Source: Pontivivens nitratireducens
GTDB lineage: Bacteria > Pseudomonadota > Alphaproteobacteria > Rhodobacterales > Rhodobacteraceae
Length of the DNA stretch: 64,000 bases
Assembly: GCF_014235845.1 (NCBI RefSeq)
Contig: NZ_JACJUQ010000003.1
Span: forward strand, 62,001-126,000
Reading direction: 5' to 3'
Below are positions 10,081-58,628 of the stretch, piece after piece; the first letter of the stretch is position 1; the number at the start of each line of letters is the position of its first letter. The notes beneath the pieces were generated by a model. That model ran no database searches and was not told the DNA's origin. It was given only the letters and a program-made list of their open reading frames with translations. Position numbers and translations under genes: made by a program.

Positions 10081-10105
10081 AACGTGCAGATCGGCTGCCA
10101 GTTCC
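10081..10105 (-). promoter_or_regulatory. EcfG-type general stress promoter (GGAAC-N16-CGTT)
   Basis: On the minus strand GGAAC is followed after exactly 16 bases by CGTT, matching the alphaproteobacterial EcfG consensus GGAAC-N16/17-cGTT. The inferred transcript would lead into the YciE-type gene 42 bp downstream. The -35 also sits inside an inverted repeat, GCCAGT-N6-ACTGGC. Confidence 0.65.
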
Positions 10106-10173
10106 GAGACTGGCGATTTTGTCGCGCTCATCAGGTGCGCATCAGATTCATGAAGGGTGACAGACGCGAAATC

Positions 10174-10905
10174 CTATAGTCGCCGCAACATACCCAACAG
10201 GCGGCTCAGCTTTGGGTCGTTTTGCGCGGTCAGTCGGGCGACATTGATCGACCAGCGTTTCGCATCGTCCGTGGTGCCCGCCAGACCGCGCAGCGGCAGG
10301 GCCTGCCGTATCGGTTGCGGCGGGGCGGCGCACTGATCGGTGACATCGACGTGATACATGCCGTCCACCAGAACGTTCAGCATCAGGGTGACACCTTCGG
10401 GAAAGCGTGCATCGTCCGGACGCAGGGCGATCATCAGCGGCACCAGGCCCATATGCAGGGTAAAGCTGTAATGCGGCATCAGCTGGCCCAGCCACGGCAC
10501 CAGATCGGTGTGGTGGCGTGGCTTTCCGAACGCGGTCGTTGCCCAATCACCGATCTGCGCACGGGACAGGCCGGTATATTCCTCGATTCGCCGCCAAAGT
10601 TCGGTTGAGGCCGCGTCGCTCAGCGTGGTTTCCGCATCACCCCGGACCGACACATCGTGCCGCAGCCAGTGCGTCGTGCGGGCCGTCCGGGCAAAGGCCT
10701 GCATCGCGTGCATCCGCTCCGCCTCGGGCAGGTTGGCCAGACGGGTGCAGTCCCATCGCCCCATGCCAAAGCGCAGCGGCACGCGGATCGCCGCATCCTG
10801 CACCGCGCGCGGTTTCATCAGGACGCTGACCGCAGGCGGTGCGTTGTGGCCGTAGGCAGCCCCGATAAAGTCGAACGCGCCGGAGCCGATCGTGATGGTC
10901 GTCAT
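10174..10905 (-). CDS. Protein of unknown function (243 aa)
   Basis: The protein begins MTTITIGSGAFDFIGAAYG and is soluble, rich in Trp, His and Arg (RFGMGRWDCTRL, TTHWLRHDVSV, GKPRHHTDLVPWL). It has no signal peptide, membrane helix or catalytic motif that I recognise. The start has GGAGG at 6 nt. It lies downstream of topA on the same strand across a 93-bp gap that contains a 9-bp inverted repeat. GC-rich codon use like its neighbours argues that it is a genuine resident gene. Confidence 0.7.
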   Translation of the reverse strand: MTTITIGSGAFDFIGAAYGHNAPPAVSVLMKPRAVQDAAIRVPLRFGMGRWDCTRLANLPEAERMHAMQAFARTARTTHWLRHDVSVRGDAETTLSDAASTELWRRIEEYTGLSRAQIGDWATTAFGKPRHHTDLVPWLGQLMPHYSFTLHMGLVPLMIALRPDDARFPEGVTLMLNVLVDGMYHVDVTDQCAAPPQPIRQALPLRGLAGTTDDAKRWSINVARLTAQNDPKLSRLLGMLRRL

Positions 10906-47888: not shown

Positions 47889-47960
47889 GGCGCGCCCCTT
47901 GGCTGGTGGCCGTCGCGAAGTCCCGCTAGGCTGCCGCGAAACCGAATGGAGGGATGGTCT

Positions 47961-49187
47961 ATGGCGACGCTGGATGTGGATTTCGTGCGGGCGCAGTTTC
48001 CCGCCTTTGCCGACCCCTCACTGCGGGGGCTGGCTCATTTCGAGAATGCCGGCGGCTCGTTTGCCTGTGGGCAGGTCATTGACCGGCTGACGCGGTTCTA
48101 TACCTCGCGCAAGTTGCAGCCCTATGGCGATACCGCGCCCAGTGCCGCCGGGGGTGCGGAGATGGACGAGGCGCGGTCGCGTCTGGCCGCCATGCTGAAC
48201 GTCGGTGAGGATGAGATCGCCTTTGGCCCCTCGACCACGCAGAACACCTATGTGCTGGCCAATGCCTTTCGCCAGATGATGCAGCCGGGCGACGCGGTGG
48301 TGGTTACCAATCAGGACCACGAGGCCAATTCCGGCCCGTGGCGGCGGCTGGCTGACGAGGGCTTCGAGGTGCGCGAATGGCGCATGGACGCAGAGGGCCA
48401 TCTGGCGCTGCCCGATCTGGAGGCGTTGCTGGATGATCGGGTGCGGGTGGTCTGTTTTCCCCATTGCTCGAACCTGGTGGCGCAGATCAACGACGTGCCC
48501 GCCATCGTGGCCAAGGTACATGCCGCAGGTGCGCTGGCCTGTGTCGATGGGGTCAGCTATGCGCCGCACGGCCTGCCCGATATCGGGGCGCTGGGCGCGG
48601 ACATCTATCTGTTCTCCACCTACAAGACCTACGGCCCGCATCAGGGGATCCTGTGCGCCACCCGCGCCGTGATCGACGCGCTGCCCAATCAGGGGCATTG
48701 GTTCAACGCGAAATATCCCGGCAAGCGGCTGACCCCTGCCGGGCCGGACCACGCGCAGATCGCCGCCTGCGCTGGGATCGCCGATTACATCGACGCGCTG
48801 TATGCGCATCACTTCGAAGCTGAGTCGCAGGCCGGGCCGGTTGCCCGCGCCGCGCAAGTGCACGATCTGATGCGGGCACGGGAAATGGCGCTGACGGGAC
48901 CGGTGCTGGAATGCCTGTCGGATCTGGACGTCAGGGTACTGGGGCCGATTGACCCGGCAGACAGGGCGCCGACCATCGCGCTGCATCATGCGCGCAAGGG
49001 AGCCGATCTGGCGGCCGATCTGGCGGCGGACGGGATCATGTGCGGCGGCGGGGATTTCTACGCGGTGCGTCTGCTGGAGGCGATGGGCATCGACCCGGCG
49101 CATGGTGTGCTGCGCGTCAGCTTCACCCACTATACCAGCGAAGAGGAAATCGACCGATTATGCGCGGCCTTGCAGCGGGTTTTGTGA
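47961..49187 (+). CDS. Aminotransferase class V / cysteine desulfurase-like protein
   Basis: A 408-residue PLP enzyme of the CsdA-like class V group: HFENAGGSFACGQVID near the start, FGPSTTQNTYVLANAF, NQDHEANSGPWRRL, VCFPHCSNLVAQINDV, VDGVSYAPHG and the PLP lysine in LFSTYKTYGPHQG. It ends with GVLRVSFTHYTSEEEIDRL. The usual mobile Cys loop of desulfurases is not obvious, so isopenicillin-epimerase-like or kynureninase-like activity cannot be excluded. GGAGGG lies 7 nt before the ATG. It precedes the stress-island promoter. Confidence 0.85.
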   Translation: MATLDVDFVRAQFPAFADPSLRGLAHFENAGGSFACGQVIDRLTRFYTSRKLQPYGDTAPSAAGGAEMDEARSRLAAMLNVGEDEIAFGPSTTQNTYVLANAFRQMMQPGDAVVVTNQDHEANSGPWRRLADEGFEVREWRMDAEGHLALPDLEALLDDRVRVVCFPHCSNLVAQINDVPAIVAKVHAAGALACVDGVSYAPHGLPDIGALGADIYLFSTYKTYGPHQGILCATRAVIDALPNQGHWFNAKYPGKRLTPAGPDHAQIAACAGIADYIDALYAHHFEAESQAGPVARAAQVHDLMRAREMALTGPVLECLSDLDVRVLGPIDPADRAPTIALHHARKGADLAADLAADGIMCGGGDFYAVRLLEAMGIDPAHGVLRVSFTHYTSEEEIDRLCAALQRVL

Positions 49188-49204: not shown

Positions 49205-49233
49205 TGATCCGAAGGACGGGGGGCGTCGTAAGA
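49205..49233 (+). promoter_or_regulatory. RpoE(ChrR-type)-like promoter of the photolyase operon
   Basis: TGATCC-N18-TAAGA, matching the Rhodobacter RpoE singlet-oxygen consensus (TGATC, about 18-19 bases, TAAGA). It lies about 30 bp before the TTG start of the photolyase. The bases before the -10, GTCG, resemble those of the second site (GACG). Confidence 0.75.
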
Positions 49234-49265
49234 AATACGACACCTTGCGATGGAGATGACCCCCC

Positions 49266-50690
49266 TTGGCCGATGGCACTGCACATGATGGAAATACCGT
49301 AAGGACGGCGATCCTGTGGTTGCGCCGCGATCTGCGTCTGGCGGACCATCCGGCGCTGTGCGCCGCGGCCGAGGCGGGCATCGTGATCCCGGTCTTTATC
49401 CGCGACGCTCAGGTTGAGGCGATGGGCGCGGCGGCGAAATGGCGTCTGGGCCTGTCGCTGGCCGATCTTTCGCAGGCGCTGGCGGCGCGCGGATCGCGGC
49501 TGATCCTGCGCTCCGGCCCCCCGGCGGAGGTCTTGCAGACATTGGCGGCGGAGGTTGGCGCGCAGGATGTGCACTGGTCGCGGCTGTATGACGGAGCCTC
49601 GGTCGAGCGGGACACCCGCGTCAAGGAGACCCTGCGCGATGCCGGTTTGAGCGTGATCAGCCATCCCGGCCATGTCCTGCACGAACCCTGGACGGTCCAG
49701 ACGGGCAGCGGCGGCTATTACAAGGTCTTCACCCCCTATTGGAAGAATGTGCGTGAGGTCGCGGTGCCGCAACCGCTGCCGGTGCCGCAGATCGACGCCC
49801 CGGCGAACTGGCCGGAAGGCGAGACTCTGGACGACTGGGCATTGGGTGCCGCGATGCGGCGCGGCGCGGAGGTCGTGGCGCAGCACGTCAATGTCGGTGA
49901 AAAGGCAGCGATGGCGCGGTTGGATCGCTTCCTCGAAGACGGGATCGAGGATTACGCGACCGACCGCAACCGCCCCGACCGGGACGGGACTTCTCGCTTG
50001 AGCGAGCACTTCACCCTGGGCGAGATCGGCATTCGTACCGTCTGGCACGCGGCCTTGCGCCCCGGCACGGGCGCGGAGACATTTCGCAAGGAACTGGCCT
50101 GGCGCGATTTCGCCTGGCATCTGGTCTATCACACCCCGCATATCGAGGACCGCAACTGGCGTGAGGAGTGGCGCGACTTCGCCTGGCGCGAGGACAGCGA
50201 CGATGCCGAACGCTGGCGTCGGGCCATGACGGGGGAGCCGATTGTCGATGCCGGACTGCGTGAGATGTACGTCACCGGCTACATGCACAACCGGGTGCGG
50301 ATGATTGTCGCCTCCTACCTGACGAAACATCTGTTGACCGATTGGCAGGTGGGCCTTGCCTGGTTCGCGGATTGCCTGATCGACCACGACCCGGCCTCGA
50401 ACGCGATGGGCTGGCAGTGGGCGGCGGGATCGGGGCCAGACGCCTCGCCCTTCTTTCGTATCTTCAATCCCGAAACCCAGGCCGAGAAGTTCGACCCCGA
50501 TGGGCGTTATCGTCGCAGGTGGCTGAACCCTGAAACCTCCCCGGACGCTGCCGCGTATTTTCGGGCAATTCCAGCCAGCTGGGGCATGTCACCGGACGAT
50601 CCTTATCCCGATCGCATGATCGGGTTGAAGGAGGGCCGGCAAAGGGCGCTGGACGCCTACGAGACTTACAAGGAAGGGGCGGACAGGTGA
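49266..50690 (+). CDS. phr: FAD-dependent deoxyribodipyrimidine photolyase (class I)
   Basis: A 474-residue photolyase using light to split cyclobutane pyrimidine dimers. It starts with ILWLRRDLRLADHPAL, has FTPYWKN, TSRLSEHFTLGEIGIRTVW, FRKELAWRDFAWHLVYHTP, the FAD-site EMYVTGYMHNRVRMIVASYLTKHLL region, and NAMGWQWAAGSGPDASPFFRIF. The start is TTG with GGAG 10 nt upstream and a stop just before, so no other start is possible except internal ones. First gene of a five-gene operon; the FAD oxidoreductase overlaps by GTGA. It is distinct from the iron-sulfur photolyase at 30-32 kb. Confidence 0.94.
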   Translation: MADGTAHDGNTVRTAILWLRRDLRLADHPALCAAAEAGIVIPVFIRDAQVEAMGAAAKWRLGLSLADLSQALAARGSRLILRSGPPAEVLQTLAAEVGAQDVHWSRLYDGASVERDTRVKETLRDAGLSVISHPGHVLHEPWTVQTGSGGYYKVFTPYWKNVREVAVPQPLPVPQIDAPANWPEGETLDDWALGAAMRRGAEVVAQHVNVGEKAAMARLDRFLEDGIEDYATDRNRPDRDGTSRLSEHFTLGEIGIRTVWHAALRPGTGAETFRKELAWRDFAWHLVYHTPHIEDRNWREEWRDFAWREDSDDAERWRRAMTGEPIVDAGLREMYVTGYMHNRVRMIVASYLTKHLLTDWQVGLAWFADCLIDHDPASNAMGWQWAAGSGPDASPFFRIFNPETQAEKFDPDGRYRRRWLNPETSPDAAAYFRAIPASWGMSPDDPYPDRMIGLKEGRQRALDAYETYKEGADR

Positions 50691-51985
50691 AAATCGCAAT
50701 CATCGGCTCAGGCATTTCGGGCATGGGCGCCGCCCTCGCACTCAGCGAAGCGCATGAGGTCACATTGATCGAGGCGGCGGAGCGGTTCGGCGGCCACGCC
50801 AATACGGTGGAGGTGGACGGAACCCCCGTGGACACCGGTTTCATCGTCTATAACCACGACAATTATCCGAACCTGACGGGGCTGTTCGCGCATCTGGACG
50901 TGCCCACCAAGGAGTCTGACATGTCGTTCGGCATGTCCATGAATGGGGGCAGCACGGAATATGCCTGCGACAACCTGTGGAAGATCTTTGCCCAGCCGAC
51001 GAACCTGCTGCGGCCGACCTTTCGCAAGGGCGTGCGTGAGATCCTGCGCTTTCACGAGGAAGCCCCCGTCGATCTGGAGGCTGGACGGTTGCGGGGCGTC
51101 AGCCTCGGCTCCTATCTGAAGCGCAAGGAATATTCCGATTGGTTGCGCGACAGTTTCCTGTTGCCGATGGGCGGGGCGATCTGGTCCACGCCTGTGGGCG
51201 ATATGCTGGATTTCCCGGCGGAGAATTTCGTCAATTTCTTTCGCAATCACGAATTGCTCAACGGGAACGGCGCGGGCAAACGCTGGCGGACGGTGGACGG
51301 GGGCAGCCGGGAATATGTCCGCCGTCTGATCGGGGCGCTGCCGCTGGCCGTCGCGGGGGCGAATGTGGTCGAGATCACGCGCCCCGCCGGACGGCCGCAT
51401 CTGCGGTTCGCGGACGGGTCCGAGGCGGCATTCGATCAGGTCGTTCTGGCGACACATGCACCGCAGGCCCGCGCCCTGCTGGCCGACATTGACCCGCAGG
51501 AGCGTAGTATTCTGGGGGCGTTCGGAACCTCCTCCAACCGGGCTGTCCTGCATTCGGACCCGGCGCTCATGCCGCGCCGCCGCCGCGTCTGGTCCAGTTG
51601 GAATTTCCTCAGCGATGGGGCGCAGGACGGAACGCGCCCGGCACCGATCACCTATTGGATGAACCGTTTGCAGGGGATTGACCGGGCGCAGCCCTTGTTT
51701 GTCAGCCTGAATCCGGGGGTGGAGCCGGACCCCGCGCTGGTCCATGCGACGTTCGACTATGCGCATCCGCTGTTCACGCAGGCTGCCTTTGACGGGCAGC
51801 GCGACATCGACGCGATTCAAGGCCGGGGCGGTGTGTGGTACGCTGGCGCATGGCTGGGTTACGGATTTCACGAGGATGGTTTGCGCGCGGGTCTGCGGGT
51901 CGCCGCTGCTATGGGCGCGCAACCCGCATGGCGGGGCGAGGATGCCACCCCGATCCTGTCACCCATGACACAGGCGGCCGAATGA
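50687..51985 (+). CDS. FAD/NAD(P)-binding oxidoreductase (amine-oxidase fold)
   Basis: A 432-residue flavoprotein of the protoporphyrinogen-oxidase/amine-oxidase fold: AIIGSGISGMGAALALS binds FAD, ERFGGHANTVEVDGTPVDTGF follows. It has LLPMGGAIWSTPVGDML and a C-terminal RGGVWYAGAWLGYGFHEDGLRAG. This type is encoded beside DUF1365 and cyclopropane-synthase genes in many bacteria and is linked to unsaturated or furan fatty-acid formation in Rhodobacter. Its GTG start overlaps the photolyase stop. It probably acts on acyl chains of phospholipids at the membrane. Confidence 0.88.
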   Translation: MKIAIIGSGISGMGAALALSEAHEVTLIEAAERFGGHANTVEVDGTPVDTGFIVYNHDNYPNLTGLFAHLDVPTKESDMSFGMSMNGGSTEYACDNLWKIFAQPTNLLRPTFRKGVREILRFHEEAPVDLEAGRLRGVSLGSYLKRKEYSDWLRDSFLLPMGGAIWSTPVGDMLDFPAENFVNFFRNHELLNGNGAGKRWRTVDGGSREYVRRLIGALPLAVAGANVVEITRPAGRPHLRFADGSEAAFDQVVLATHAPQARALLADIDPQERSILGAFGTSSNRAVLHSDPALMPRRRRVWSSWNFLSDGAQDGTRPAPITYWMNRLQGIDRAQPLFVSLNPGVEPDPALVHATFDYAHPLFTQAAFDGQRDIDAIQGRGGVWYAGAWLGYGFHEDGLRAGLRVAAAMGAQPAWRGEDATPILSPMTQAAE

Positions 51986-52716
51986 ACCCCGCCATCACCC
52001 TGTATACCGGGCATGTCATGCACATGCGGTTGCTGCCGAAACGGCACCGGTTTCGCTATCGCGTCTTCTCATGCCTGTTCGATCTGGACCGGATGGGCGC
52101 TGCGATGCGGGACAGCCGGGTCTGGGGTCGGATCCTGCGCTTCGATGCGAAGGATCACGGGCCGCGGGACGGGTCGGACCTGCGCCCATGGGTCACGCGG
52201 ATGCTGGCCGATCACGATCTGCCCGCGCCCGCGCGGGTGGAGTTGCTGTGCTTTCCGCGATTGTGGGGCATCGTGTTCAACCCGTTGTCGGTCTACTTTT
52301 GCCGCGATGCGCAGGATGAGGTTTATGCCACGCTCTACGAGGTGAAGAACACCTATGGCGGGCAGCAGGTCTATGTCCTGCCGGCGCAGGTTCAGGGCGG
52401 CGCGATCCGACAGCGGCAGCAGAAGACCTTCTGGGTTTCCCCCTTCATTCCGATGCAGCAAACTTACAGATTCGACGTGCAGCCGCCGGGCGCGCGGTTG
52501 TCGCTGCGCATTCGTCAGCATGGCGATGACGGCGACGTTCTGATCGCCACGCAGACCGGTCATGGACAGATCGCCACCGACCGGGCGCTGTTGCGGGCGG
52601 TGGCAACCCATCCGCTGATGACGCTGAAGGTGATCGTGGCGATCCACTGGCAGGCGCTGCGCCTCGCCCTGAAGGGGGTGCGCTTTCTGGGAACCACCGA
52701 CCCCGCCACCCGATAA
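51982..52716 (+). CDS. DUF1365 family protein
   Basis: A 244-residue protein matching DUF1365: LYTGHVMHMRLLPKRHRFRYRVFSC, the FCRDAQDEVYATLYEVKNTYG segment preceded by WGIVFNPLSVYF, and KTFWVSPFIPMQQTYRF. The conserved His/Arg at the start and NPLSVYF are diagnostic. It almost always accompanies the FAD oxidoreductase and a Cfa-like methyltransferase, so a role in modified fatty acid formation is inferred. Its ATG overlaps the previous stop (ATGA). Confidence 0.88.
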   Translation: MNPAITLYTGHVMHMRLLPKRHRFRYRVFSCLFDLDRMGAAMRDSRVWGRILRFDAKDHGPRDGSDLRPWVTRMLADHDLPAPARVELLCFPRLWGIVFNPLSVYFCRDAQDEVYATLYEVKNTYGGQQVYVLPAQVQGGAIRQRQQKTFWVSPFIPMQQTYRFDVQPPGARLSLRIRQHGDDGDVLIATQTGHGQIATDRALLRAVATHPLMTLKVIVAIHWQALRLALKGVRFLGTTDPATR

Positions 52717-52759
52717 ACATTCATTTGATTTTTGGATTCAGACTGCCGAAGGTTTCGAT

Positions 52760-53965
52760 ATGACGTATTTGACGACGACTTCGGGCCAGACGGGCCTGCC
52801 ACGCTGGTTCGGACAAGGCTTCGCGATCCTGTCGAACATCCGTGCCGGAACCATCGACACGCATCTTCCCGACGGCCGAATCTTTCGTGCCGAGGGGGCT
52901 GAGCAGGGTCCCTATGGTCGGATCGAGGTCAAGGACGGCGCGATGTTCGCCCGTGTCGTGCGCGACGGGGAGCTGGGATTTTCTGAGGCCTTCATGGACG
53001 GGCAATGGGATACTCCCGATCTGCAAGCGCTGCTGGACGTGCTGTTGCTCAACAACGAGCAGATCGGCCGGAATGCGCCGGGGATCGCACTGGTTCGGAT
53101 GTGGGAGCGGGCGCGCCACTGGATGCGCCGCAATTCCCGCGATCAGGCGCGCAAAAACATCAGTTACCACTACGATCTGGGCAACGAATTCTACGGCCTG
53201 TGGCTGGACGACACGATGAGCTATTCCTCCGCTTTGTTCACCCATCCACAGCAGGCGCTGGAGGCGGCGCAAACCGCGAAATACGCCTCAATATGCGATG
53301 AGCTGGGGGTCAAGCCGGGCGATCACGTTCTGGAAATCGGCTGCGGCTGGGGCGGTTTCGCGGAATACGCGGCGAAGGAACGCGGCGCGAAGGTCACCGG
53401 CCTGACCATCAGCCAGCAGCAGCACGATTACGCCGTCGAGCGTATTGCCCGTGCCGGATTGCAGGATCAGGTTGAGATCGCGATGCGCGATTATCGCGAT
53501 GAAACGGGAACCTATGACGGCATCGCCTCGATCGAGATGTTCGAGGCGGTCGGAGAGCAGTACTGGCCGACCTATTTCGACGCCGTGCGCGCCCGGTTGA
53601 AACCCGGCGGTCGTGGAACGTTTCAGATCATCACCATTGCCGACAAGCTGTTCCCGGAATATCGCAAGAGCGTCGATTTCGTGCAGAAATATGTCTTTCC
53701 CGGCGGAATGCTGCCTTCGGTGTCGGCCCTGCGTGAGCAGTTCGCGCGGGCGGAGTTGAGCGAGGTCGGCAATATCCAGTTCGGGCAGAGCTATTCCGAA
53801 ACCCTGCGCCGCTGGCATGAGACGTTCAATGCCCGTTGGGATGAGATCGCGGCGCTGGGCTTTGACGATCGGTTCCGCCGTATGTGGAATTTCTATCTGA
53901 CCAGCTGCGCCGCGACCTTCCGCTACGAGACGACAAATGTCGTCCAGATGACCGTCAGGCGGTGA
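52760..53965 (+). CDS. Cyclopropane-fatty-acyl-phospholipid synthase family methyltransferase (copy 2)
   Basis: A 401-residue SAM methyltransferase: NISYHYDLGNEFYGLWLDDTMSYSSALF, SAM loop VLEIGCGWGGFAEYAA, GLTISQQQHDYAVERI, IASIEMFEAVGEQYW, the KYVFPGGMLPSV segment and the final RMWNFYLTSCAATFRY. In R. sphaeroides a related methylase of the singlet-oxygen regulon (UfaM type) makes a methylated trans-unsaturated acyl chain, precursor of furan fatty acids; the Cfa and UfaM options cannot be separated by eye. It is placed in the RpoE-type operon. Confidence 0.9.
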   Translation: MTYLTTTSGQTGLPRWFGQGFAILSNIRAGTIDTHLPDGRIFRAEGAEQGPYGRIEVKDGAMFARVVRDGELGFSEAFMDGQWDTPDLQALLDVLLLNNEQIGRNAPGIALVRMWERARHWMRRNSRDQARKNISYHYDLGNEFYGLWLDDTMSYSSALFTHPQQALEAAQTAKYASICDELGVKPGDHVLEIGCGWGGFAEYAAKERGAKVTGLTISQQQHDYAVERIARAGLQDQVEIAMRDYRDETGTYDGIASIEMFEAVGEQYWPTYFDAVRARLKPGGRGTFQIITIADKLFPEYRKSVDFVQKYVFPGGMLPSVSALREQFARAELSEVGNIQFGQSYSETLRRWHETFNARWDEIAALGFDDRFRRMWNFYLTSCAATFRYETTNVVQMTVRR

Positions 53966-55254
53966 GGGACAAGAGCGGGCTGAGGCGCCGCGCGCTGGCT
54001 GCCTATGCCGCCCCTGCTCTGCCAATGGCGGCGCTGTACCTGCCTGTCTATGTCTTCCTCGCTCAGTACTGGTCGGGCACGATGGGGGTGTCCGTCGGGG
54101 TTATCGGTGCCGTGTTCATAGCGGTGCGATTGCTCGATGCGATCACCGATCCGGTCATGGGCTGGCTGTCGGATCGGGTGACCATAGGGGGATTGCGGCG
54201 CAAGCCGTGGTTGCTGTTGGCCCTGCCCGGCATCGGGGTGGCGGTCTGGGCCTTGCTGGTGCCGCCGAACGGGGCCGGGATCGTCTGGTTCGCAGGCTTC
54301 CTGGTATTGCTGACCATCTCGTGGACCATGTACCTGACGCCGTATTTCGCATGGGGCGCGGAGTTGACCGGCGATTATGCCGAACGCGCCCGCGTGACCG
54401 TCTGGAGGGAGACCGCGGGCCTGCTGGGAACGGTCTGCGCCATGCTTCTTTACGGAACGGCGGAGGCGGGCACCGGGTTGCAGCGGATCGCATTGCTGGT
54501 GATGATTGGCTTGCCGGTGCTGACCCTGATTGCGCTGCGCGCGCCAGAGGGGGCTGTCAGACCTGCACCGGGAAGGGAGGCGTTGTGGCGGGTGCTGCGC
54601 ACCGACCCGGTGTTCGGGCGGTTGTTGCTGGCCTATCTGCTGAACGGGGCGGCGAATGCGCTGCCCGCGACGCTGTTCCTGTTCTTCGTTGAATTTCGTT
54701 TGGGCGACGCGGCGGCGGGGGGACCGCTGCTGATCGCGTATTTCGGGGCTGCGATGCTGGGCGCGCCGTTGTGGATCTGGGCGGGCAAGCGGTTCGACAA
54801 GCATCGGGTCTGGTGTCTGGCCATGCTCTATGCCTGTGCGATCTTCGCGGCGGCCTTCACGCTGGGACCGGGCGATGTGACGGGATTTGCCGTGATTTGC
54901 GTGTTGAGCGGATTGGCGCTGGGCGCGGACCTGTCCCTGCCACCCGCGATGCAGGCCGATGTGGTGGACGTGGACACGCTGCGCAGTGGCGTGGCGCGGA
55001 CCGGTGCGTTCTTTGCGCTGTGGTCGGTGGCGACCAAGGCCTCCGTCGCGGTGGCGGGGGGCGTGGCGCTGATCGTTCTGGAATGGCAGGGCTTTTCGGC
55101 CCAGGGCAGTAATGCGCAGGGTGCGCTGATCTGGCTGGCCGGTCTGTACGCGCTGGCGCCGGTCGCGCTGAAACTGGCGGCGGTGGCGCTGATGTGGCGG
55201 TATCCGCTGGGGCGTGAGGTTGCGACGGCCAACCGGGCGCGGATCGAGGGTTAG
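53962..55254 (+). CDS. MFS transporter of the GPH (glycoside-pentoside-hexuronide) type
   Basis: A 430-residue 12-helix protein: ALPMAALYLPVYVFLAQYW, LLDAITDPVMGWLSDR with the GPH-like DP-x2-G motif, and PYFAWGAELTGDYAERARVTVWRE, the conserved loop of MelB relatives. The second half has ALWIWAGKRFDKHRVW. A similar GPH gene belongs to the R. sphaeroides RpoE operon. It may transport or flip a lipid-derived compound rather than a sugar. The GTG start overlaps the methyltransferase stop (GTGA). Confidence 0.85.
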   Translation: MRDKSGLRRRALAAYAAPALPMAALYLPVYVFLAQYWSGTMGVSVGVIGAVFIAVRLLDAITDPVMGWLSDRVTIGGLRRKPWLLLALPGIGVAVWALLVPPNGAGIVWFAGFLVLLTISWTMYLTPYFAWGAELTGDYAERARVTVWRETAGLLGTVCAMLLYGTAEAGTGLQRIALLVMIGLPVLTLIALRAPEGAVRPAPGREALWRVLRTDPVFGRLLLAYLLNGAANALPATLFLFFVEFRLGDAAAGGPLLIAYFGAAMLGAPLWIWAGKRFDKHRVWCLAMLYACAIFAAAFTLGPGDVTGFAVICVLSGLALGADLSLPPAMQADVVDVDTLRSGVARTGAFFALWSVATKASVAVAGGVALIVLEWQGFSAQGSNAQGALIWLAGLYALAPVALKLAAVALMWRYPLGREVATANRARIEG

Positions 55255-56051
55255 CTCTTGCGCCGATCCTGGCCGTTCCAGCCCGTCGCCTTTCGCACGG
55301 CGGCGATATAGGCGCGGTTGGGCAACAGGCGGAATGTCTTGAGCAATATCTCGAACCGGGTGGGGAATGCGATTTCGAATCCCGGCTTGCCCAGGCCCGC
55401 GACGATCCGCGCCGCCGCGTCCTGCGGTTGCATCAGGAACGGCATGTCGAATTCATTGACGGCGGTCGCCTCTGTATCGACGAAGCCGGGGTTGATGACG
55501 GAAATCCGCACGCCGAGATCTTCGAGGTCCATGGCCAGCGCCTCGCAATAGGCGATCAGCGCGGCCTTGGTGCCGGAATAGACCGCTGCGTCCGGCAACC
55601 CGCGATAGCCTGCGACGGAGGCGGTTACGGCCAGATGCCCGGTCCCCTGAGCGATCATCGTCTTCAATACCGGATCGGTACAGTTGGAGACGCCCTCCAG
55701 ATTGACGCGCCACATTTTCGCAGCGGTGGCTGCATCGAAATCATTGGCACGCATCGGCGTGTAGACCCCAGCGTTGAGCAAGGCGAGCGCGAGGGGGCGC
55801 TCCGCCGTGATCCGCGCCACGATCTGCGCCATCTGCTCGGCATCGGTGACGTCGCCGGGGGTGGGGATGATACGGCCTGCCGGACCCTCCGCCGCCAGAG
55901 TGTTCAGGTCGTCCTCGCCCCGCGCGGTAGCGTGGATCGTCCAGCCGGCCTGCGCCAGTTTCAACACCGTCGCGCGCCCGATGCCGCCCGACGCACCTGT
56001 CACCCATGCGACACCGTCTTCGGGGGTCATGACCTTGGAAAACACACTCAT
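55251..56051 (-). CDS. Short-chain dehydrogenase/reductase of the ChrR operon
   Basis: A 266-residue SDR: VAWVTGASGGIGRATVLKLAQ (NAD(P) loop), LLNAGVYTPMRANDF, NLEGVSNCTDPVL, catalytic Ser in AVTASVAGYRG and YSGTKAALIAYCEALAMDL, and NPGFVDTEATAVN. The C-terminal basic helix (RFEILLKTFRLLPNRAY) suggests membrane association, fitting a lipid substrate. Its start overlaps the DUF6134 stop (ATGA), so it is the last gene of the minus-strand stress operon; it converges on the GPH gene by 4 bp. Confidence 0.87.
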   Translation of the reverse strand: MSVFSKVMTPEDGVAWVTGASGGIGRATVLKLAQAGWTIHATARGEDDLNTLAAEGPAGRIIPTPGDVTDAEQMAQIVARITAERPLALALLNAGVYTPMRANDFDAATAAKMWRVNLEGVSNCTDPVLKTMIAQGTGHLAVTASVAGYRGLPDAAVYSGTKAALIAYCEALAMDLEDLGVRISVINPGFVDTEATAVNEFDMPFLMQPQDAAARIVAGLGKPGFEIAFPTRFEILLKTFRLLPNRAYIAAVRKATGWNGQDRRKS

Positions 56052-56722
56052 GATTCACTCCAGATTTCGGCAAAGGCAGGGCTGAGACTGTCGGCAATAT
56101 AGGTGACCTGCGATCCGCGGGCGTCAAACGTGCTGCCGGCCCATTCCCCTGATGCGGTGTAGTGGACCGTGGCGGGAAGCTCCGCCCCCAGCGCATAGGC
56201 CGTCGTCGCCACGGTGCCGCCCGATACCGGGTAACTGGCCGTGCCCGTCCGGGTGGCGCGAATGTCGAGCGGTGTGCCGCCCTGCGTGCTGATCCAGACG
56301 GGGCGATCCAGAATGGCCGGGTTCCAATAGCTCGTCGTGCCCACATCCGCATCCGCAGTGCCCGAAAATGCGGAGCCGTTTATGCGGATCACAGACCCGG
56401 ACCAATCGGCGTTCACGAAGGTCGCATCCCCATTATTGTCACTGCGCGACCGAATGCTTCGTAACATGCCGTTTTGCCAGATTTCGCGGCTCGTCATCTC
56501 ATAGCGATAGGCGACAAGGCCCAGAACTCGCACCGCGATTGCGATGCTGACATCCACCGTCAGCGTATCGCCGGAGCGGCCGATACTGATGTCGTGGGTT
56601 CCAATCTCGCTGCCCGCACGATCCAGACGATAGCGGCGCGACGCCGTCTGTGCCCGGGCCACGGATGGCATGGCCAGGGCGGCAACACCGGTGGAGATGA
56701 GCGTGCGGCGCGACAGGATCAT
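56048..56722 (-). CDS. DUF6134 family exported protein
   Basis: A 224-residue precursor with a twin-arginine-like signal (SRRTLISTGVAALAMPSVARA) and a mature beta-rich domain (RRYRLDRAGSEIGTHDISIG, VAYRYEMTSREIWQNGMLRSIRSRSDNNGDATFV). The Arg/Asn-rich SRSDNNG turn and the repeated strands match DUF6134, a family with lipocalin-like appearance. It is likely periplasmic and might bind an oxidised lipid. ATGA overlap links it with the ChrR-like gene upstream. Confidence 0.8.
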   Translation of the reverse strand: MILSRRTLISTGVAALAMPSVARAQTASRRYRLDRAGSEIGTHDISIGRSGDTLTVDVSIAIAVRVLGLVAYRYEMTSREIWQNGMLRSIRSRSDNNGDATFVNADWSGSVIRINGSAFSGTADADVGTTSYWNPAILDRPVWISTQGGTPLDIRATRTGTASYPVSGGTVATTAYALGAELPATVHYTASGEWAGSTFDARGSQVTYIADSLSPAFAEIWSES

Positions 56723-57360
56723 GTGAACAGGTTCAGCGCACGGGAGAACGGGCCGGTGAAGCGCATCTTTCCCGACATCACGATCAGGCAGTAACATATT
56801 TCGTCTCCCGTAATTCGGGGGCGGTGGTCATGATCGCCGTCCGCCTCCGCGATGTCGCCGCGCCGCAGGACGGTGTCGCCGTCGGTCATTTCACCTGACA
56901 GGATCAGGGTCGCTTCCTCACCATGATGGGTGTGTTGCAGCATCCCCGCGCCCGGCCGCGCGCGCAGCAGGGAAACGTCCTCCCCCTCGGAATAGCCTTC
57001 GAGAACGTATTCGTGCAGGCCGGGCAGACGGAATTGCCAGTGCAGATCGTCCACCGGTCGCCCCAGAACGGCGGCCAGGGGGGCAGGCAGGATGCCCAGC
57101 GGTTCGGGGGCGGGATCCTCGGGCGGGTCGACTTCCAGCGTGTCGAGGCGGGTCAGCGTGCGGTTCAGCGCGTCCTTGGCGAGGGGCACGGCGGGCGCGT
57201 CGTGCAGCAAGGCACCCCCGACATCCTGCATCAGGTGGAGCCGCTCCACGCAATGCGGCGCGATGGCCAGATGGCTTCGCATCAGCAAATCCACGCCCGG
57301 CGTCGCGGTGCCGGACGCGAAGGCGGCGAGCATGGCGTCAGAGGGCAGGTGGCTGGTCAT
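56719..57360 (-). CDS. chrR: ChrR-like zinc-binding cupin anti-sigma protein (altered anti-sigma ligand set)
   Basis: A 213-residue two-domain ChrR homologue. The C-terminal cupin keeps the metal set HTHHGEE (His143, His145, Glu149) and a later His in DGDHDHR. The N-terminal zinc anti-sigma domain normally has His ... His-x3-Cys-x2-Cys; here it is His4, His30, Ala34 and Cys37, with an extra His36. One cysteine ligand is therefore missing. No ECF sigma gene lies upstream. The gene leads a minus-strand operon and carries its own RpoE-type promoter. It may be a second, degenerate ChrR, or bind the metal with His36. Confidence 0.85.
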   Translation of the reverse strand: MTSHLPSDAMLAAFASGTATPGVDLLMRSHLAIAPHCVERLHLMQDVGGALLHDAPAVPLAKDALNRTLTRLDTLEVDPPEDPAPEPLGILPAPLAAVLGRPVDDLHWQFRLPGLHEYVLEGYSEGEDVSLLRARPGAGMLQHTHHGEEATLILSGEMTDGDTVLRRGDIAEADGDHDHRPRITGDEICYCLIVMSGKMRFTGPFSRALNLFT

Positions 57361-57393
57361 TATGCGCACATTCCGGTCGTTTCCTTTACCCCC

Positions 57394-57422
57394 TTTTACG
57401 TCGTCCCGAGGCGGGTGGATCA
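57394..57422 (-). promoter_or_regulatory. RpoE(ChrR-type)-like promoter of the chrR operon
   Basis: Minus-strand TGATCC-N18-TAAAA, the same spacing and -35 as the photolyase operon promoter. It lies 34 bp before the chrR start. Both sites occur in opposite orientation at the two ends of the island. Confidence 0.7.
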
Positions 57423-57494: not shown

Positions 57495-58628
57495 ATGACC
57501 CGCCACCTGTTTTTCTACGGCACGCTGCGCGATGTCGAAACGCTCGACACTGTGATGGGACCATACGCGGAGGTCATCGAGGCGAGTGAGGCGACGCTGC
57601 CCGATCACGCGGTGGTGGAGGTTATGGGCGAGGATTATCCGGTCATCGTGGCGTGCCAGGGGGCGATGGCGCGGGGTGTGCTGGCCTCGAACCTGCCGCA
57701 GGGCGCGGTCGAGCGATTGCGCTATTTCGAGGATGAGTTCGACTATGCGCTGGAAACCCGCACCGTGCACACGGCAGACGGACCAAGCGAGGCCGAGGTC
57801 TTCTTTGTACGGGGCGATCATCTGAAAATCGGCGGATCGTGGGATTTCGAAGGATGGGCGCGGACCCATCAGGCCGCCTTCGTCGAATGCGCGCGTGAGC
57901 TGATGGCGCTGTACGGGCAGGTGCCGGATAAGGACGTGGATCGTATCTGGCCCGGCATCCGCTTTCGCGCCTATGCCCGTGCACGCGCCCGCGCGGAACG
58001 CCCCGCTGTGATCCACCGCAGCGGATTGAGCCGCGAGGATGTGGAGGTCAAGCGGACCGAAAGACCCTATGTGGATTATTTCGCTGTCGAGGATCTGCGG
58101 CTGAGCCACCGGACCTTCGCCGGTCAAATGCAGGGGCCGATGGATCGGGCGGTTTTCGCCAGCGGCGATGCGGTCGCCGTGCTGCCATGGGACCCGCGCA
58201 CGGATCGGGTGCTGATGATCGAGCAGTTCCGCCCCGCGCCCCTGGCCCGAGGCGCGCAGGTGCCATGGTTGCTGGAGCCGATTGCCGGACGCATCGACAC
58301 CATCGAAACCGCCGAACAGACCGCCCGGCGCGAGGCGGAGGAGGAGGCCGGCCTGACCATCGGGCGCATGGACGCGCTGCCGCCCTTCTATTCCAGCCCC
58401 GGCTGCCTGACCGAGCAGATGAGCTGCTATATAGCCGAGGCCGACCTGTCGCAGGCGGGCGGCGTGCACGGGCTGGACACGGAGCATGAGGATATTCGCT
58501 CGGTTCTGCTGGATGTCGCGGATCTGCGCGATGCTCTGACCTCGGGCGAGGTTGAGAACGGGCCGCTGATCGTTCTGATCCAGCATCTGCTGATCCATCA
58601 TGATCGTCTGCGGTCCGCCTGGGGGTGA
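57495..58628 (+). CDS. trgB: Fusion of gamma-glutamylcyclotransferase-like and Nudix hydrolase domains (TrgB-like)
   Basis: A 377-residue protein. Residues 1-100 are an AIG2/GGCT-like domain (HLFFYGTLRDVETLDTVMG). The C-terminal half is an ADP-ribose pyrophosphatase-type Nudix domain with the box G-x5-E-x7-REAEEEAG (GRIDTIETAEQ ... TARREAEEEAG) and the preceding LEPIAG. This matches TrgB of Rhodobacter sphaeroides, whose gene also precedes cysK and contributes to tellurite resistance. GGAG precedes the start. The roles of the two domains are unproven. Confidence 0.85.
   Translation: MTRHLFFYGTLRDVETLDTVMGPYAEVIEASEATLPDHAVVEVMGEDYPVIVACQGAMARGVLASNLPQGAVERLRYFEDEFDYALETRTVHTADGPSEAEVFFVRGDHLKIGGSWDFEGWARTHQAAFVECARELMALYGQVPDKDVDRIWPGIRFRAYARARARAERPAVIHRSGLSREDVEVKRTERPYVDYFAVEDLRLSHRTFAGQMQGPMDRAVFASGDAVAVLPWDPRTDRVLMIEQFRPAPLARGAQVPWLLEPIAGRIDTIETAEQTARREAEEEAGLTIGRMDALPPFYSSPGCLTEQMSCYIAEADLSQAGGVHGLDTEHEDIRSVLLDVADLRDALTSGEVENGPLIVLIQHLLIHHDRLRSAWG

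What the first reader, a model, noticed from the sequence alone, without database searches (positions are those of the whole stretch)
49205..57422. Two matched RpoE/ChrR-type promoters bracket a singlet-oxygen-type stress island
TGATCC-N18-TAAGA stands before the photolyase operon and TGATCC-N18-TAAAA, on the other strand, before the chrR operon. Both are 30-35 bp from their first start codon. The spacing, -35 and -10 match the RpoE promoters known from Rhodobacter sphaeroides, and the gene content (photolyase, Cfa-like methyltransferase, FAD oxidoreductase, DUF1365, GPH transporter, SDR, ChrR) is that of its singlet-oxygen regulon. Here it is split into two convergent operons.
Basis: partly seen in the sequence, partly recalled or inferred. 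Interest (0 to 1): 0.75.

Follow-up and report, generated by a model that had tools for sequence, protein, structure and literature searches.

The report
Rewired light-stress switch, anti-sigma separated
Two matched promoters do flank a gene island that looks like a known bacterial defence against light-generated singlet oxygen, but here and in related bacteria the gene for the brake protein ChrR is separated from that of the sigma factor it should hold, and ChrR often lacks the zinc site thought essential to it, which gives a natural test of how singlet oxygen is sensed.

Summary
TGATCC-N16-CGTA stands at 49205 (+) before the photolyase operon and at 57422 (-) before chrR. It fits the published R. 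sphaeroides RpoE promoter, and the genes fit the RpoE (sigma-E) singlet-oxygen regulon. The only ChrR over cut-off in the genome heads a chrR-DUF6134-SDR operon. The best RpoE orthologue lies on another contig, overlapping an asparaginase gene, with no RpoE site upstream. A third site stands before one of two rpoH genes.

Of 84 chrR loci compared, 68 have rpoE beside chrR and 16, the window included, do not. The 16 form one branch. In the 68, rpoE carries the site in 64. In the 16, chrR carries it in 13; rpoE carries it in 0 of 10 genomes examined. Inferred circuit: constitutive sigma-E, ChrR as delayed negative feedback, furan-fatty-acid genes as positive feedback.

The window's ChrR lacks two of the four zinc ligands of its anti-sigma domain. 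The full set is missing in 10 of 16 separated and 8 of 68 linked ChrRs; the cupin ligands are invariant in 84 of 84. I have no expression, metal or singlet-oxygen data. New variant of a known kind.

The parts
49205..49233 (+). RpoE-type promoter A: TGATCC (49205-49210), N16, CGTA (49227-49230), before the photolyase operon
   Evidence: site before phr in 7 of the 10 loci of this branch that have phr there, window included
49266..50690 (+). photolyase (phrA-like), TTG start
   Evidence: PF03441, PF00875
50687..51985 (+). FAD amine oxidase-like; kind and position of RSP_1091/UfaD (furan fatty acid desaturase)
   Evidence: PF01593; beside rpoE in most linked relatives; name from PMC7380195 by family and position, no R. 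sphaeroides sequence compared
51982..52716 (+). DUF1365 protein, RSP_1090/UfaO-like
   Evidence: PF07103; name from PMC7380195 by position
52760..53965 (+). CMAS/Cfa-like methyltransferase, RSP_2144/UfaM (cfaS)-like
   Evidence: PF02353; name from PMC7380195 by family
53884..55254 (+). GPH/MFS_2 transporter, RSP_1089-like; start codon uncertain (searched from 53950)
   Evidence: PF13347
55251..55254 (.). 4-bp overlap of the stop codons of the two convergent operons; no terminator-like hairpin found there
55251..56051 (-). short-chain dehydrogenase/reductase, RSP_1087-like
   Evidence: PF00106
56048..56722 (-). DUF6134 protein; likely start ATG 56722, directly against the chrR stop codon (the longer ORF starts at 56797); looks exported (RR plus hydrophobic N-terminus, read by eye)
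   Evidence: PF19630; in 14 of 16 separated chrR loci
56719..57360 (-). ChrR, 213 aa: anti-sigma domain without the full HHCC zinc set (L/H/A/C at R. sphaeroides positions 6/31/35/38), cupin domain with all ligands
   Evidence: TIGR02451 132.8 bits, cut-off 124.5; model m3624b06ac449
57394..57422 (-). RpoE-type promoter B: TGATCC (57422-57417), N16, CGTA (57400-57397), before chrR
   Evidence: site before chrR in 13 of 16 separated loci, window included
57495..58628 (+). GGACT-NUDIX protein, stands next to chrR where rpoE lies in linked relatives
   Evidence: PF00293, PF06094

Best explanation
The island is the response and brake part of an ECF11 sigma-E (RpoE)/ChrR system whose sigma factor gene has been separated from its anti-sigma gene. 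Sigma-E is made from rpoE on contig C41 without autoregulation, probably from a housekeeping promoter. ChrR holds it. When singlet oxygen or a lipid-peroxidation signal removes ChrR, sigma-E transcribes (1) phr plus a furan-fatty-acid gene set (ufaD-ufaO-ufaM-like) and a transporter, (2) chrR-DUF6134-SDR and (3) one rpoH gene, taken as rpoHII. Output 1 would feed the signal that removes ChrR (positive arm); output 2 rebuilds the brake (negative arm). Shown by sequence: sites, gene order, separation, RpoE and ChrR orthology, missing zinc ligands, invariant cupin ligands. Inferred: pairing of this ChrR with that RpoE, constitutive rpoE, inhibition without the anti-sigma-domain zinc, cupin-based sensing, rpoHII identity, induction by singlet oxygen.
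For: Sites and positions. Same motif before rpoE in 64 of 68 linked relatives (shuffle mean 0.2) and before chrR in 13 of 16 separated ones (shuffle mean 0.015), but before rpoE in 0 of 10 genomes of the branch; controls SDR 0 of 15, FAD gene 0 of 10. rpoH 6 of 10. phr 7 of 10. RpoE orthology: best solved match is R. sphaeroides RpoE, 1.7e-40 against 7.6e-22 for the next; in 8 of 8 linked genomes searched its best hit is the chrR-linked RpoE; separated and linked RpoE fall together apart from 7 paralogues (support 97). Only one TIGR02451 hit over cut-off in the genome. In G003, a one-contig genome of the same genus, chrR and rpoE are about 1.25 Mb apart. Separation is one change on the ChrR tree, support 99. 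The rpoE place is shared: IalB-like gene divergent in 10 of 10, asparaginase downstream in 9 of 10. TTGCCA/T-N17-(G/A)ATAAT upstream of rpoE in the 4 genus members, TTGTTC-N17-GATAAT in G017. The anti-sigma domain of members without the zinc set is still constrained: dN/dS 0.25-0.37 for the 3 genus pairs; ASD/CLD identity ratio 0.75 in zinc-poor pairs, 0.75 in zinc-bearing pairs, 0.69 in mixed pairs.
Against: No expression, binding or metal data. A housekeeping-type rpoE promoter of one common form was found in 5 of 10 only; a sixth regex match (G004) is of another form and place. The site is missing before chrR in G250, G286 and G346 (G346 has CGTT), before rpoH in 4 of 10 (two of them in this genus, G001 and G003), and before phr in 3 of 10. 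The motif is short and must also occur by chance (23 looser sites in the genome, most inside genes). Zinc binding is reported as required for R. sphaeroides ChrR to inhibit sigma-E (PMC6852236), so a ChrR lacking ligands might not inhibit. The separated RpoEs are not one clade on the RpoE tree. rpoE was located in 10 of the 17 genomes concerned (16 with separated chrR plus G001).
Confidence: 0.72

Rival explanations
1. Ordinary R. sphaeroides-type system: the reader's reading, with only gene order changed and the same autoregulated sigma-E/ChrR circuit.
For: Same promoter motif and gene content; same kinds of target: phr, ufa-like genes, rpoH.
Against: rpoE is not next to chrR in 16 of 16 separated loci and has the site upstream in 0 of 10, against 64 of 68 in linked relatives.
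Confidence: 0.12
2. ChrR here is a decaying relic: without the full zinc set it no longer inhibits, sigma-E is free, and the cupin part persists for another reason.
For: Full zinc set absent in 10 of 16 separated ChrRs. In G001 of the same genus only the last ~55 residues remain and no site was found before phr or rpoH. The anti-sigma domain evolves faster than the cupin domain.
Against: The anti-sigma domain is under purifying selection (dN/dS 0.25-0.37) and, relative to the cupin, as conserved in zinc-poor pairs as in zinc-bearing pairs; 8 of the 10 zinc-poor separated ChrRs keep a site before chrR; the predicted model's best matches are the six R. sphaeroides ChrR chains.
Confidence: 0.15
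3. Another ECF sigma factor of the genome reads the sites, or the C41 RpoE has another anti-sigma factor; the two genes are not partners.
For: Five further ECF-like sigma genes exist in the genome by my reading; pairing was not tested.
Against: The two of them that the RpoE search found are far less similar (87 and 60 bits against 442); the motif is the ECF11 one and stands before rpoE of the ECF11 pair in 64 of 68 linked genomes.
Confidence: 0.06

Closest known systems
Rhodobacter sphaeroides sigma-E (RpoE)/ChrR, ECF11, singlet-oxygen response (PMC6852236; PMC3818230; PMC7380195; PMC7074977)
   Same: Orthologous RpoE and ChrR, same promoter motif, photolyase, ufaD/ufaO/ufaM-like genes, GPH transporter, SDR, an rpoH target.
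   Different: rpoE is unlinked and without an RpoE site; chrR heads its own operon with DUF6134 and SDR; photolyase and furan-type genes share one operon; window ChrR lacks the full HHCC set; linked relatives have a gene between transporter and SDR (DUF3833 in the one tested) and no DUF6134 hit over 45 bits.
Corynebacterium glutamicum SigH/RshA (PMC3489674, abstract)
   Same: Circuit logic: sigma gene from housekeeping promoters, anti-sigma gene from a sigma-dependent promoter of its own, proposed for quick shut-down.
   Different: There the two genes form an operon and are also co-transcribed; another ECF group (recalled).
Anti-sigma factors with a zinc-less domain, RseA and RskA (PMC7406223, passages)
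   Same: An anti-sigma domain can fold and inhibit without zinc.
   Different: Membrane proteins of other ECF groups without a cupin domain (recalled); here zinc-poor members sit inside the ChrR family beside zinc-bearing ones.
Rhodobacter capsulatus remodelled rpoE-chrR locus (PMC7074977, passages)
   Same: A relative in which the locus was rebuilt.
   Different: rpoE and chrR stay adjacent there and are only remotely similar to those of R. sphaeroides (24% and 13% identity as stated in that paper).

Membership tests
ECF11 sigma-E/ChrR system | sigma factor of the RpoE (R. sphaeroides) type | tested here: met
   C41 RpoE: 2q1z_A 1.7e-40, next 7.6e-22; best hit is the chrR-linked RpoE in 8 of 8 linked genomes searched
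ECF11 sigma-E/ChrR system | sigma and anti-sigma genes together as rpoE-chrR | tested here: not met
   chrR on C33, rpoE on C41; 16 of 16 separated loci lack rpoE beside chrR
ECF11 sigma-E/ChrR system | promoter TGATCC(N15)GCGTA before regulon genes | tested here: met
   phr, chrR and an rpoH gene; the G before CGTA is not matched here and was not required in the counts
ECF11 sigma-E/ChrR system | RpoE site before rpoE itself (autoregulation) | tested here: not met
   0 of 10 rpoE upstream regions in this branch, 64 of 68 in linked relatives
ECF11 sigma-E/ChrR system | induction by singlet oxygen through ChrR turnover | not testable with these tools
   needs expression and proteolysis assays
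ChrR family (TIGR02451) | full-length match over curated cut-off | tested here: met
   132.8 bits, cut-off 124.5; low, the 54 linked members fetched score 167-234
ChrR family (TIGR02451) | cupin-like domain with H141, H143, E147, H177 | tested here: met
   invariant in 84 of 84 aligned
ZAS (zinc anti-sigma) proteins | HHCC ligand set, H-X24-H-X3-C-X2-C | tested here: not met
   window L/H/A/C; full set in 6 of 16 separated and 60 of 68 linked ChrRs
ZAS (zinc anti-sigma) proteins | zinc in the anti-sigma domain needed for inhibition | not testable with these tools
   needs metal analysis and a binding assay

The most novel reading that the evidence does not exclude
In this branch ChrR holds sigma-E without any anti-sigma-domain zinc and responds to singlet oxygen through its cupin domain alone; the zinc site, proposed elsewhere as the singlet-oxygen sensor, has been lost repeatedly (at least 10 changes of state on the tree), most often in the lineage that was rewired from an autoregulated sigma/anti-sigma pair to constitutive sigma plus anti-sigma feedback.
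Probability: 0.38. Interest if true: 0.7.

Novelty: new variant of a known kind. Interest (0 to 1): 0.52.

Why it matters
Whether singlet oxygen acts at the anti-sigma-domain zinc or in the cupin domain of ChrR is stated as open (PMC6852236; PMC6432622 argues for the zinc, PMC4960319 names the cupin domain). ChrRs that lack zinc ligands but keep the cupin ligands, and mostly the promoter and the regulon genes, are natural variants for that question. The separation also changes feedback design: autoregulated sigma with co-made anti-sigma would become constitutive sigma with inducible anti-sigma, so one regulon could be compared under two circuit designs in related bacteria.

Tried and rejected

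A wider own-genome regulon: the 27 sites from the patterns were checked. phr and chrR (given) and one rpoH gene were accepted. TGATCC-N17-TAAAA 44 nt before a 441-aa oxidoreductase-like gene (L001) was not, because spacing and -10 differ. Several sites have an ORF downstream but lie inside longer ORFs; one is at a contig end.

rpoHII identity: the genome has two rpoH genes; I call the one with the site rpoHII by that site alone.

Zinc loss as a mark of separation: rejected as exclusive, because 8 of 68 linked ChrRs also lack the full set. The Fisher value (6.7e-5) ignores relatedness; on the tree the trait needs 10 changes, about 4 of them in the separated branch by my reading. The residue-6 column lies near the N-terminus and its alignment is less sure than 31, 35 and 38.

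A second ChrR: the C40 match (32.7 bits) covers the cupin part only and is below cut-off.

Rows dropped: 28 of the 88 genomes over cut-off were not fetched; of the 319 genomes matched only the best 30 loci were looked at; G122 (chrR broken over two contigs) and G001 (chrR remnant) are outside the 84. 57 of 84 ChrRs went into the tree. The RpoE tree holds 22 of 68 linked RpoEs, 10 from the separated branch and 7 paralogues; there the separated RpoEs are not one clade and G103 and one paralogue are long branches.
Full report
Observation. Both sites are present as described and are beyond chance for the window (2 found, 0.07 expected, 0 of 100 shuffles with 2). They end 32 and 33 nt before the likely start codons of phr and chrR. 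The genes are photolyase, FAD amine oxidase, DUF1365, CMAS methyltransferase and MFS_2 transporter on the plus strand, and ChrR, DUF6134 and SDR on the minus strand. I take the ChrR start at 57360, where the TIGR02451 match begins; the longer ORF is an upstream extension.

Motif. In 68 related genomes with rpoE next to chrR, the region before rpoE carries TGATCN-N16-NGTA in 64 (61 with TGATCC-N16-CGTA; shuffle mean 0.2). The published R. sphaeroides RpoE promoter is TGATCC(N15)GCGTA (PMC5036791, one passage). A scan of the window's genome with a related pattern gave 23 sites. Of the 27 sites from both genome scans, three stand directly before a gene of a known RpoE-regulon kind: phr, chrR and, on contig C42, an rpoH gene (TGATCCGACCCGCCAACCGGGACGTATCA, about 46 nt from its probable start). 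It is one of two rpoH genes; I take it as rpoHII because of the site. In R. sphaeroides phrA, cfaS and rpoHII are direct RpoE targets (PMC7074977, passages).

The missing sigma factor. No rpoE lies beside chrR; a GGACT-NUDIX gene is there. The genome has one ChrR over the TIGR02451 cut-off. Among its sigma region-4 genes the one at C41:81341-81955 is the RpoE orthologue: its best solved match is R. sphaeroides RpoE (1.7e-40, next 7.6e-22); in 8 of 8 linked genomes searched its best hit is the chrR-linked RpoE at 42-52% identity, well ahead of the next sigma factor; and on a tree it groups with linked RpoEs apart from 7 paralogues (support 97), although the separated RpoEs are not a single clade there. 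It overlaps an asparaginase gene and faces an IalB-like gene. That place is shared by the genomes examined (IalB-like 10 of 10, asparaginase 9 of 10). In the one-contig genome G003 of the same genus chrR and rpoE are about 1.25 Mb apart, so the separation is not an assembly effect. No RpoE site stands before rpoE in any of the 10 genomes of the branch examined. The four genus members have TTGCCA/T-N17-(G/A)ATAAT and G017 has TTGTTC-N17-GATAAT instead. I read this as a housekeeping promoter; that is inference, and the other five lack this form.

How old and how wide. In 395 genomes of the family, the window's ChrR finds matches in 319; 15 genomes score 143 bits or more and the next 114. Of the best 30 loci, the top 15 lack rpoE beside chrR and the next 15 have it. 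With G003, not in that sample, there are 16 separated chrR loci; 54 linked ones fetched and 14 more make 68. A tree of 57 of these 84 ChrRs puts the separated ones on one side of a single branch (SH-aLRT 99, quick method). Contig lengths identify G002 as Monaibacterium marinum and G017 as Rubricella aquisinus; NCBI lists Pontivivens marinum, which I recall as the same organism. I did not name the window's own species. In this branch the RpoE site stands before chrR in 13 of 16 (12 exact; shuffle mean 0.015), before phr in 7 of the 10 loci that have it (G001 included), before the rpoH gene in 6 of 10 and before rpoE in 0 of 10; controls: SDR 0 of 15, FAD gene 0 of 10.

Zinc. By alignment to R. 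sphaeroides ChrR of 2z2s the anti-sigma-domain ligands H6, H31, C35, C38 are L, H, A, C in the window. The full set is present in 6 of 16 separated and 60 of 68 linked ChrRs; on the tree this needs at least 10 changes. The cupin ligands H141, H143, E147, H177 are kept in 84 of 84. All 8 linked ChrRs without the full set still have the site before their rpoE, and 8 of the 10 separated ones have it before chrR. The anti-sigma domain of zinc-poor members is not decaying faster: dN/dS is 0.25-0.37 among the three genus members with a full chrR, and its identity relative to the cupin domain is 0.75 in zinc-poor pairs (45), 0.75 in zinc-bearing pairs (15) and 0.69 in mixed pairs (60). It does evolve faster than the cupin domain (dN/dS 0.09-0.10 in two pairs; the third was saturated at synonymous sites and is meaningless). 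A model of the window's ChrR (4 sequences, mean pLDDT 71) has four N-terminal helices and a cupin; its best six solved matches are the six R. sphaeroides ChrR chains. Confidence falls after residue 40, so this shows the fold family, not zinc-free stability. In R. sphaeroides zinc in this domain is needed to inhibit sigma-E, and its role in sensing is called unknown (PMC6852236, parts 1-4 of 6 read). A model peptide study supports this zinc site as sensor (PMC6432622, passages); another paper names the cupin domain (PMC4960319, passages).

Mechanism. The plus-strand operon joins kinds of gene that R. sphaeroides keeps at two places, phrA and cfaS/ufaM (RSP_2143, RSP_2144) and RSP_1091-1089 (ufaD, ufaO, GPH) (PMC7380195, PMC3818230 and PMC7074977, passages). 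The names rest on Pfam family and position; no R. sphaeroides sequence of these genes was compared. Proteins that make furan fatty acids are required for ChrR turnover by singlet oxygen (PMC6852236), so this operon would be the positive arm and the chrR operon the negative arm. With rpoE outside, the sigma pool would be constant and ChrR the adjustable part. Similar logic is described for C. glutamicum SigH/RshA (PMC3489674, abstract). The step from sequence to circuit is inference.

Literature. The listings (titles and starts of abstracts) of searches, and the passages read, showed me no report of an unlinked chrR in this group or of ChrRs without the zinc ligands; most subscription papers are not in the library. 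Zinc-less anti-sigma domains as such are well known (PMC7406223, passages).

Verdict. The finding is real and, as stated, ordinary for this family. The part worth following is the separated, often zinc-poor ChrR.

Noticed in passing
window 55251-55254; for relatives: The two RpoE-type operons end in overlapping stop codons with no terminator-like hairpin found between them; overlap of 4-18 bp in 7 of 10 convergent members, gaps of 1, 28 and 32 bp in the others. Convergent transcription by one sigma factor should give overlapping antisense ends.
   Followed up: partly
L031 (G001, same genus), about 10100-10370: chrR is reduced to its last ~55 codons; TGATCC-N16-CGTATAT still stands before it, rpoE has a full open frame, but no site was found before phr or rpoH: a natural chrR loss.
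   Followed up: partly
window 56048-56722: DUF6134 gene directly behind chrR in 14 of 16 separated loci; function unknown; no hit over 45 bits in the 54 linked loci, where the one gene tested between transporter and SDR is DUF3833.
   Followed up: partly
window 47946-49187: A kynureninase/class-V aminotransferase-like gene stays next to the plus-strand operon in several branch members.
   Followed up: no
L029 (G003), downstream of SDR: A fasciclin-like gene by eye in the sequence; R. sphaeroides lists a fasciclin gene (RSP_1409) in its RpoE regulon. In G003 no photolyase operon was found at this locus.
   Followed up: no
8 linked relatives: G013, G028, G061, G103, G106, G115, G133, G327: ChrRs still next to rpoE also lack part of the HHCC set while keeping the RpoE site before rpoE.
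   Followed up: partly
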